64,000 bases of DNA from Lachnospiraceae bacterium C7 (lineage in GTDB: Bacteria > Bacillota > Clostridia > Lachnospirales > Lachnospiraceae): positions 1 through 64,000 of the forward strand of contig FOPE01000002.1 of the NCBI GenBank assembly GCA_900113385.1, written 5' to 3'. The notes beneath the pieces were generated by a model. It was not told where the DNA came from. It saw only the letters and a program-made list of their open reading frames with translations, and did no database searches. Every line of letters starts with the position of its first letter. Positions within the stretch are counted from its first letter, which is position 1. Of this stretch, positions 1-1,304 are shown piece after piece. A program made the translations under genes and the position numbers.

Positions 1-48
1 AAAGCAATCATGCTTATCCTTAGCAACATCAATTCCTACGTAAATCAT
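1..48 (-). CDS. IS110-family transposase, N-terminal fragment cut by window edge
   Basis: The reverse strand reads ATG at 48 and encodes MIYVGIDVAKDKHDCF up to the window edge. The VGIDVAKDKHD block is the classic start of the RuvC-like DEDD domain of IS110 transposases, and its first Asp is the first catalytic acid. A good ribosome binding site (AAAGGAG) lies 10 bases upstream on that strand. The enzyme is a DEDD recombinase that, in the family, works with a structured guide RNA made from the element. Only 16 residues are visible, so it cannot be judged intact or broken. Confidence 0.8.
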   Translation of the reverse strand, partial: MIYVGIDVAKDKHDCF

Positions 49-84
49 AAAAATAAATCTCCTTTGAAATGTATTAATGCTGTT

Positions 85-345
85 TTAGAACCACAGGGTG
101 CTCTTTGCGATTGTAACCTCGTTCTAAATAAACCGTCATGCGGTATCTAACTGATTAACAAATGAACAAAGAGACTGTGGTTGGAGCCTTTCTTAAACCA
201 TCAAGTGGTAGGAAATAATAACCGATCCACAGCATCCTAAATATCATAGTCGAACCTATAGAAAAGGTAAAGAAAAGACTATGACTTAATAGTTATAAAG
301 ACCTTGGAGAGGGTCTCTAAAAACTACTACTATATAATACGAGGA
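85..345 (-). ncRNA. Candidate IS110 bridge RNA (structured non-coding region)
   Basis: The region just upstream of the transposase start forms several strong stems. Bases 89-96 pair with 175-182 (8 bp) and 101-107 pair with 167-173 (7 bp). They enclose a 59-base loop with an apical 4-bp hairpin (132-135 with 141-144). Bases 244-251 pair with 277-284 (8 bp), and a short GACC/GGTC hairpin lies near 301-317. Stems with large internal loops match the general plan of IS110 bridge RNAs, whose loops specify target and donor DNA. The ends are estimated, and no guide sequence could be assigned because the other element end is missing. Confidence 0.6.
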
Positions 346-401
346 AATGTGGTGATTTTTGCAATTTACACTTGACAAAGGTCACTTCATAACAGGTTTT
401 T

Positions 402-1304
402 ATGCAATTATATATTAAAGGAATTACAGACATATTAATGGCTTGTGCAATTGTCATTATGTCTATTAATGTATATAAATTTTCCAGATTTATGTTTAAA
501 TCTGTTGATGTATTAGCAATTAACCAATTTAAGGATTTTATTCTAGAACATGTGGCAGTTTTTTTGCTGATAGCATTTGACTTAGCATATATTAGTGTGT
601 TTTTGAGTCATAAAGCAAATCTTGTAATAGCTTTAGTCTTTTTGGGTGGTGCAATTTTTGTTACAGTTGTACTGTTATTACTATTAGGTTATGTAGAAAA
701 AGTAAAAGAAAGTAGTCTAGCAATTTCTGAAGCTCTAATCGGTGTAATAGAAGCAAGAGATCCTAATTTAAACGGACACAGTGTGTCTGTTCGAAATATA
801 ACTATGCTTTTTTATCAGTATTTGCCTTTACATATCAAGGCAAAAATTAATCCAGTAAGTCTTGAATATGCGGCACTTTTACATGATGTAGGAAAACTAG
901 GAATCCCAGAATTTATTCTCAATAAACCAGGAAAATTAACAGAAGAAGAATATGAAATCATGAAGTTGCATCCTAGAATTGGAGTGCAGATTTTAGCCCC
1001 TTTGAAGAATTTTGACATTGTAAAAGAGTGGATAGAGTACCATCACGAAAGAATTGATGGTAGAGGATATTATAATTTAAAAGGGGAAGATATACCTTTA
1101 CCAGCAAAAATAATAGCTATTGCAGATACCTATTCAGCTATAACTATGAGAAGATCCTATAAAGAGCCAAGAACTCATGATGATGCTATAAAAATAATAA
1201 GTGAAGTTGCAGGAACGCAGTTAGATAAAGAATTAGTAGAAATTTTTGTTACTATTCCTCGTCAGCAGTTGATAGATTGCACTCCAGAAAATGTATCAAA
1301 GTAG
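402..1304 (+). CDS. Membrane HD-GYP-like domain protein
   Basis: This 300-residue protein has about three membrane segments (residues 8-28, 50-68, 74-96) followed by an HD-type phosphohydrolase domain. The metal-binding pattern is visible: H126, H161-D162, H190, H214-H215 and D242. The HD-GYP hallmark is degenerate: the family reads HHE..DG.GYP, whereas here it is HHERIDGRGYY. Such proteins usually hydrolyse cyclic di-nucleotides such as c-di-GMP, but that activity is uncertain here. There is no good ribosome binding site before ATG 402, and an in-frame stop lies at 390-392. The nearby IS110 end may have replaced the original promoter or 5' end. Confidence 0.75.
   Translation: MQLYIKGITDILMACAIVIMSINVYKFSRFMFKSVDVLAINQFKDFILEHVAVFLLIAFDLAYISVFLSHKANLVIALVFLGGAIFVTVVLLLLLGYVEKVKESSLAISEALIGVIEARDPNLNGHSVSVRNITMLFYQYLPLHIKAKINPVSLEYAALLHDVGKLGIPEFILNKPGKLTEEEYEIMKLHPRIGVQILAPLKNFDIVKEWIEYHHERIDGRGYYNLKGEDIPLPAKIIAIADTYSAITMRRSYKEPRTHDDAIKIISEVAGTQLDKELVEIFVTIPRQQLIDCTPENVSK

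What the first reader, a model, noticed from the sequence alone, without database searches (positions are those of the whole stretch)
49..345. Bridge-RNA-like structure of an IS110 element
The sequence between the transposase start and the element end forms multi-part stems with large internal loops (89-107 with 167-182, and 244-251 with 277-284 on the transcript strand). IS110 recombinases are known to use such RNAs to choose target and donor DNA. This element could be a new programmable recombinase variant in a gut Clostridium.
Basis: partly seen in the sequence, partly recalled or inferred. Interest (0 to 1): 0.75.

Follow-up and report, generated by a model that had tools for sequence, protein, structure and literature searches.

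The report
IS110 bridge RNA aimed at ribosome-binding sites
The window begins inside a jumping gene of the IS110 family, and the flagged stretch encodes its guide ("bridge") RNA; in this lineage the guide carries the sequence that ribosomes use to find gene starts, so the element tends to insert just in front of genes.

Summary
Window 1-48 (-) is the first 16 codons of an IS110 DEDD recombinase, cut by the contig end. A covariance model built from relatives scores it 188.5 bits, and base pairs covary.

Guides match the flanks of their own insertion sites far better than permuted guides (LT 0.69 vs 0.46, RT 0.66 vs 0.41, 0/5000 each). The occupied site is the best or tied-best guide match among nearby CT sites in 47 of 58 loci.

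So this is a member of the known IS110 bridge-RNA system (IS621-like, CT core). The new part is the address. The consensus guide copies the 16S rRNA 3' (anti-Shine-Dalgarno) tail, and 60 of 86 left flanks place a start codon at Shine-Dalgarno distance, against 80 of 256 control CTCCT sites and 5 of 81 right flanks. My literature searches found no report of this. Expression and recombination are inferred.

The parts
1..48 (-). first 16 codons of the IS110 DEDD recombinase (contig end cuts the gene)
   Evidence: translation; full-length relative L010 hits PF01548 and PF02371, NF033542, IS621 8wt6
59..65 (-). AAAGGAG, likely ribosome-binding site of the recombinase
   Evidence: sequence; similar sequence in the alignment
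49..341 (-). left non-coding end (LE) of the element
   Evidence: LE boundary from comparison of junctions and empty copies of the host repeat
342..343 (-). CT core dinucleotide
   Evidence: shared by LE and RE junctions and by the empty site CACATTTC-CT-TTCTTTT
334..339 (-). TATTAT, -10 half of a promoter completed only when RE and LE are joined in the circle (TTGACT, 17 bp, TATTAT)
   Evidence: of 56 RE-LE junctions of relatives, 54 have 17-bp spacing, 55 TTGAC[TA], 52 TATTAT
296..319 (-). 5' stem-loop of the bridge RNA (TAGAGACC/GGTCTTTA)
   Evidence: covarying arms, 2 of 5000 swaps
   Evidence: compensatory arm variants but not significant overall; absent from short-LE relatives
175..232 (-). 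target-binding loop (TBL): CTGTGG/CCACAG, TCGG/CCAA and apical ACCA/TGGT stems
210..221 (-). left target guide TTATTATTTCCT (ends with the CT core)
   Evidence: covaries with left flanks; matches ATTTCCT of the empty site
188..196 (-). right target guide TTAAGAAAG (complement CTTTCTTAA)
   Evidence: covaries with right flanks; the three own right flanks start CTTTC
101..173 (-). donor-binding loop (DBL), outer stem CTCTTTG/CAAAGAG, apex ACCG/CGGT
118..122 (-). right donor guide ACGAG, complement of CTCGT at the element's own left end (339-343)
   Evidence: ACGAG/CTCGT versus ACAAG/CTTGT co-change
147..152 (-). candidate left donor guide AGTTAG (right end reads AGTTAGT-CT)
   Evidence: register imperfect, weak
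91..96 (-). CTGTGG copy that can pair with CCACAG and open the TBL (possible alternative fold)
344..397 (-). left target flank = end of a second, IS1111-type multicopy element into which this IS110 is inserted

Best explanation
The stretch is the left end of an IS110-group insertion sequence and encodes its bridge RNA. Proposed cycle: the recombinase excises the element as a circle; joining right and left ends creates a promoter (TTGACT-17-TATTAT) that transcribes a roughly 250-nt RNA from the left end, followed by the recombinase gene. The RNA's donor-binding loop pairs with the element's own junction (right donor guide ACGAG with CTCGT). Its target-binding loop pairs with a chromosomal site around a CT core, and the recombinase exchanges strands there. 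In this lineage the target-binding loop carries a copy of the anti-Shine-Dalgarno sequence (consensus CCTCCTTTCT over the guide positions), so the element inserts antisense at ribosome-binding sites, cutting just 5' of AGG(AG) and leaving the Shine-Dalgarno and start codon attached to the gene. Shown by sequence: anatomy, covariation, guide-target matching, address, promoter spacing. Inferred: transcription, RNP formation, recombination, activity of this particular copy (its full recombinase gene is not assembled), and tolerance by the downstream gene.
For: Recombinase; DEDD residues and the C-terminal serine invariant in 26 of 26 aligned relatives (D7, E60, D103, D106, S312 of L010). RNA: model R1 finds window 76-238 at 188.5 bits; covariation. 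Guides: 76 unique LT-guide pairs match at 0.689 vs 0.457 permuted and 68 RT pairs at 0.655 vs 0.411 (0/5000 each); occupied site best or tied best in 47 of 58, mean 9.7 of 13 vs 3.65 background. Own copies: empty site ATTTC-CT-TTCTT in the host repeat equals the own guide over 12 consecutive positions, core included. Address: over 73 distinct guide sets the commonest base at -4 to -1, core, +1 to +4 reads CCTC-CT-TTCT, the 3' tail of 16S rRNA; 60 of 86 left flanks have a start codon plus ORF of 50 codons or more at 6-18 nt from the first core base (53 ATG), versus 80 of 256 CTCCT control sites (50 ATG; Fisher 5e-10, ATG 1e-12) and 5 of 81 right flanks. Junction promoter. Donor.
Against: The element in this genome is only known as pieces: 5 left ends and 3 right ends, no complete recombinase. 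The core structure alone does not fold clearly better than chance (z -1.75), and the outer TBL stem competes with another conserved pairing. The left donor guide is only a 6-nt match with an imperfect register, and the donor loop was not parsed in 14 loci, including the seven with CTACTATT-type left ends. The own left guide matches its four distinct left flanks at only 5, 7, 4 and 6 of 8 non-core positions (C36/C33, C67, C90, C37). In 11 of 58 loci some other nearby site matches the guide better. Outside -4 to +4 the guide does not follow the 16S tail (match 0.16-0.47 at -8 to -5). Of 86 left flanks, 26 have no qualifying ORF start, including two of the four distinct own flanks. No RNA or activity data exist here.
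Confidence: 0.9

Rival explanations
1. The conserved CTCCT in the left guide is a structural constraint of the RNA, and the Shine-Dalgarno sites are hit only because a fixed CCT next to the core is common in front of genes; there is no special address.
For: CCT ends 68 of 73 guides and CTCCT 51 of 73, so part of the guide hardly varies.
Against: Start codons are much commoner beside occupied sites than beside CTCCT control sites in the same flanks (53/86 vs 50/256 ATG). Guides that change this stretch have sites that change with it: the four copies in Galacturonibacter records with guide ...ACCTTCT (L072, L073, L075, L076) all sit at sites ending CTTCT, three of the four at ACCTTCT; and of six elements whose guides end CCTCACT, CCTCGCT or CCTCTCT, four sit at CCTC-N-CT sites (L067, L096, L097, L114) and two do not (L039, L113).
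Confidence: 0.12
2. The guides were originally directed at the 3' end of 16S rRNA genes (same sequence as the anti-Shine-Dalgarno), and Shine-Dalgarno sites are by-products.
For: The consensus guide equals part of the 16S tail.
Against: None of the 86 left flanks has the 16S context GATCACCTCCT. rRNA genes assemble poorly from short reads, so this is weak.
Confidence: 0.07
3. The left end is a regulatory leader of the recombinase gene (an attenuator or switch), and the matches to flanks arise because the element's ends were mis-assigned.
For: Two mutually exclusive conserved pairings and a ribosome-binding site downstream.
Against: Guide-flank covariation on both sides with 0/5000 permutations and the uninterrupted host repeat defining the boundary.
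Confidence: 0.03

Closest known systems
IS621 bridge RNA system (IS110 group; Durrant et al. 2024, PMC11208160; sections 5, 6, 7, 12, 20 and passages read)
   Different: recombinase 391 aa against 328 in the IS621 PDB chain, with the unaligned middle about 60 residues longer; longer RNA with an extra hairpin; targets mostly Shine-Dalgarno sites, not REP elements
IS1111/IS110 seekRNA systems (Siddiquee et al. 2024, PMC11187229; section 13 and passages read)
   Same: non-coding-region RNA that selects the target, natural retargeting between relatives
   Different: IS1111 members carry the RNA downstream of the gene; here it is upstream
ISCro4 recombinase (PDB 9t56, seen only)
   Same: second solved structure with sequence and fold similarity
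   Different: not examined further

Membership tests
IS110 group of the IS110 family | DEDD RuvC-like N-terminal domain and C-terminal Transposase_20 domain with conserved serine | tested here: met
   L010 relative: PF01548 2e-41, PF02371 2e-20; DEDD and S invariant in 26 of 26. In this genome only the N-terminal 16 residues and 3' pieces are seen
IS110 group of the IS110 family | bridge RNA in the left end, upstream of the gene | tested here: met
   window 76-238 (-), 188.5 bits, 27 bases upstream of the start codon
IS110 group of the IS110 family | 5' stem-loop followed by target- and donor-binding internal loops | tested here: met
IS110 group of the IS110 family | target-binding loop complementary to the insertion site | tested here: met
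IS110 group of the IS110 family | donor-binding loop complementary to the RE-LE junction | tested here: inconclusive
   right donor guide met (ACGAG/CTCGT; 4 of 6 CTTGT elements carry ACAAG, the other 2 keep ACGAG, a G-T wobble; 14 loci not parsed); left donor guide only AGTTAG
IS110 group of the IS110 family | promoter reconstituted across the circular junction | tested here: met
   of 56 joined ends: 17-bp spacing in 54, TTGAC[TA] in 55, TATTAT in 52; activity not tested
IS110 group of the IS110 family | scarless circular excision | tested here: inconclusive
   a 1563-bp circular record is one such element (L040), but its junction is 5 nt longer than expected
IS110 group of the IS110 family | RNA is expressed, binds the recombinase and is needed for recombination | not testable with these tools
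   needs experiments
IS1111 group | long non-coding end and RNA downstream of the gene | tested here: not met
   the RNA lies upstream; the neighbouring second element does have its long non-coding end downstream

The most novel reading that the evidence does not exclude
A clade of IS110 elements in Lachnospiraceae and other Clostridia has turned its bridge RNA into a mimic of the 16S rRNA 3' tail. This gives it a near-universal genomic address, the Shine-Dalgarno sequence, and it inserts antisense one step upstream so that the Shine-Dalgarno and start codon stay intact. The outer part of the left guide drifts (some, 10 of 73, even include CAT, a start codon read antisense) while the anti-Shine-Dalgarno part is kept. 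In this genome an IS1111-type element independently sits in front of start codons in 8 of 8 examined ends, so translation-initiation sites may be a recurrent address of RNA-guided DEDD elements.
Probability: 0.6. Interest if true: 0.75.

Novelty: new variant of a known kind. Interest (0 to 1): 0.6.

Why it matters
Bridge RNAs are a recently described class of natural programmable DNA recombination guides, and how natural elements choose and change addresses is poorly known. A clade whose guides copy the anti-Shine-Dalgarno sequence would show an RNA-guided mobile element using the translation signal itself as a landing site present in front of very many genes, with consequences for host range, survival of insertions and gene regulation. 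It also supplies 76 left and 68 right natural guide-target pairs for learning guide rules, including mismatch tolerance.

Tried and rejected
Rfam at gathering thresholds found only tRNAs in the window, so no known-family model could be used; I built my own. The plasmid and phage collections gave only five relatives. My first parse of the donor loop 3' strand failed and was redone with a looser pattern (14 loci still unparsed). From the first few flanks I considered TC as the core; the wider set showed CT. I looked for an outward promoter at the left end by eye: TATAAT is present on the outward strand but I saw no matching -35, so no claim is made. The AlphaFold model was poor (mean pLDDT 65.7, pTM 0.45); Foldseek still ranks IS621 and ISCro4 chains in the first 11 places, which adds little to the sequence match.

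Rows dropped before counts: of the 123 loci parsed, 101 gave a guide and 22 did not (recounted). Unique guide-flank pairs only were kept. One search used distinct left flanks of 200 nt or more (86). One search used 58 loci with both flanks and a parsed guide. One search covered 98 sources and 91 gave a match (7 none: L001, L002, L008, L033, L035, L037, L102; the window and L003 are the same DNA). The search for related loci kept the best 80 of 360 relatives. In some searches the genomes were drawn evenly from a larger family group (299 and 200). L052 (about 30 nt missing in the target loop) was left out of A1 (40 of the 41 distinct left ends). A3 holds only the 23 long-left-end rows and was not used for a count. 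For the second element, 8 of the 9 places were given as loci and examined.

Literature: no report of IS110 or IS1111 guides aimed at Shine-Dalgarno sites was found in the listings of searches or in the parts read of PMC11208160 and PMC11187229. Bridge-RNA searches (one found nothing) and seekRNA search 44 listed the known papers, reviews and unrelated ones. The library holds no preprints and not most subscription papers. PMC11208158 was seen only as a search listing with the start of its abstract.

Full report
What is there. The window is the first 64 kb of contig C36 of a 91-contig genome. On the - strand, window 48->1 encodes MIYVGIDVAKDKHDCF, the start of an IS110-family recombinase, and the contig ends inside the gene. 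The same left end occurs at five contig ends in the genome (C36, C67, C33, C90, C37; a sixth hit on C74 is a 51-base, 86% match), and three contigs carry the right end (C58, C68, C39). The element is therefore multicopy and probably collapsed in assembly, and its full gene is not assembled. Complete relatives come from unnamed family members (L010, L011) and from 80 named loci whose record titles are mainly Lachnospiraceae and other Clostridia. The L010 recombinase (391 aa) hits PF01548 and PF02371, the NCBI model for IS110 RNA-guided transposases and IS621 in the PDB. The DEDD residues and the serine are invariant in 26 of 26 aligned relatives.

Boundaries. Comparing left and right junctions gives [left target] CT | CGTATTATATAG ... 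TTGACTTTTAATAGTTAGT | CT [right target], that is, a CT core with element proper from window 341 inward. Direct evidence comes from the flank itself. The bases outside the core (window 344-397) belong to a second repeat, a 26-nt piece of which is found at nine places. Of the eight copies given as loci, two carry this IS110, five read across the site uninterrupted as CACATTTC-CT-TTCTTTT (one as CGCATTTC) and one is cut short by its contig end. The own guide predicts ATTTC-CT-TTCTT.

The RNA. The left end aligns across 41 distinct left ends with an almost invariant frame and two variable patches. Mean column identity in A1 is 0.65 in the left guide, 0.80 in the right guide and 0.92 elsewhere. A covariance model from 40 sequences finds the window at 188.5 bits and gives a match in 91 of 98 sources searched, some of them cut short by contig ends. 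Covariation: 5 pairs changed on both sides against 1.6 shuffled on A1, and 14 against 4.4 on A2 (A2 is fitted to the structure and contains 9 weak opposite-strand rows). Limits: the 163-nt core alone folds only at z -1.75, and an alternative pairing (GATGCTG/CAGCATT with AACCACAG/CTGTGGTT) is also conserved, with one covarying outer pair. The two may be alternative states, for example guide RNA versus messenger; this is untested.

Guides meet targets. From 123 loci, 101 guides were parsed. Left guides match left flanks at 0.689 of 8 positions against 0.457 when guides are permuted among guide groups. Right guides match at 0.655 of 7 positions against 0.411; both 0 of 5000. Signal is present at -8 to -1 and +1 to +5 and absent at +6 and +7, close to the layout described for IS621 (PMC11208160). 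Right guides change cleanly with right flanks, for example GTAAG with CTTAC, GTTAG with CTAAC, AACGGAG with CTCCGTT and AGAATAG with CTATTCT. When the empty site is rebuilt from both flanks and every CT in the flanks is scored, the occupied site is best or tied best in 47 of 58 loci (31 strictly), mean 9.7 of 13 against a background of 3.65; in 11 loci some other site scores higher. For the own element the matches are uneven: the host-repeat site fits over 12 consecutive positions including the core, but over the 8 left non-core positions the four distinct own flanks score 5 (C36/C33), 7 (C67), 4 (C90) and 6 (C37).

Donor side. The donor loop carries ACGAG, complementary to CTCGT at the left end. 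Four elements with CTTGT carry ACAAG, and two others with CTTGT keep ACGAG, a wobble; 14 loci, including those with CTACTATT-type left ends, were not parsed. The left donor guide is weaker (AGTTAG). Of 56 joined right and left ends of relatives, 54 have 17-bp spacing, 55 a TTGAC[TA] box and 52 TATTAT, a promoter layout across the junction as reported for circles of this family (PMC11208160).

The address. Among 73 distinct guide sets the commonest base from -4 to -1, through the core, to +4 reads CCTC-CT-TTCT; further out (-8 to -5) the guide does not follow the tail. The sequence CTGGATCACCTCCTTTCT occurs 3 to 6 times in each of four complete relatives, and in the two checked with Rfam it lies at the end of 16S rRNA, so the guide copies the anti-Shine-Dalgarno tail. 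No 16S tail was found in the own draft assembly. Of 86 distinct left flanks, 75 read AGG and 38 AGGAG from the core in gene sense. Sixty have a start codon with an ORF of 50 codons or more at 6-18 nt from the first core base, 34 of them at 11-13 nt, and 53 have an ATG. Controls: 80 of 256 CTCCT sites in the same flanks and orientation (50 ATG; Fisher 5e-10 and 1e-12), 247 of 1108 TCCT sites (135 ATG), 2103 of 11387 CT sites (1046 ATG), and 5 of 81 right flanks (3 ATG). The remaining 26 sites lack such an ORF. ORFs here are mechanical calls, not annotated genes. In the own genome the neighbouring genes are an ABC ATPase that I read as SufC-like (recalled; Pfam says ABC_tran), an HxlR regulator and, 28 nt away, a transporter permease.

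Interpretation. By membership this is an IS110-group element with a bridge RNA. What distinguishes it is the anti-Shine-Dalgarno address, which I have not found in print (searches; no preprints held). The geometry leaves AG(GAG) and the start codon with the gene and replaces what lies upstream by the element's left end; whether the gene stays expressed is unknown.

The neighbour. The repeat that hosts this copy is the right end of an IS1111-type element: a relative has a 371-aa DEDD recombinase whose 3' side faces this end; the subterminal repeats typical of IS1111 were not tested. All 8 ends examined in this genome (of 9 places) have an ATG 8-12 nt from the A of AGG that opens an ORF of at least 70 codons. 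One of them is the HD-domain gene at window 402-1304.

Noticed in passing
window 344-397; L124-L131: End of a second multicopy element (IS1111-type by position of its non-coding end; relative L132 has PF01548 + PF02371). In 8 of 8 examined ends an ATG with an ORF of at least 70 codons starts 8-12 nt from the A of AGG, in sense orientation, so two different DEDD elements in this genome sit at translation starts. The IS110 is nested inside it.
   Followed up: partly
L040 1-1563: A 1563-bp circular plasmid record of Monoglobus pectinilyticus (NZ_OY725734.1) consists of one IS110 element, probably its excised circle; the junction carries 5 nt more than a clean RE-CT-LE join.
   Followed up: partly
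window 76-98 and 175-238: Copies of CTGTGG/CCACAG allow two mutually exclusive conserved folds, one with the target loop's outer stem closed and one with it open, upstream of the recombinase start.
   Followed up: partly
L080, L085, L098 (guides and right flanks); L093 (right flank only): Right target guides ATACGAG, with right flanks CTCGTAT, equal the family's own donor sequence CTCGTAT; L093 has such a flank but no parsed guide.
   Followed up: no
L052 2841-2973: Element with about 30 nt missing in the target-binding loop, which removes the right guide.
   Followed up: no
L001 1108-2070 (G000:C79, - strand): A different, shorter IS110-type recombinase frame (320 aa) in the same genome, with no R1 bridge-RNA hit.
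   Followed up: no
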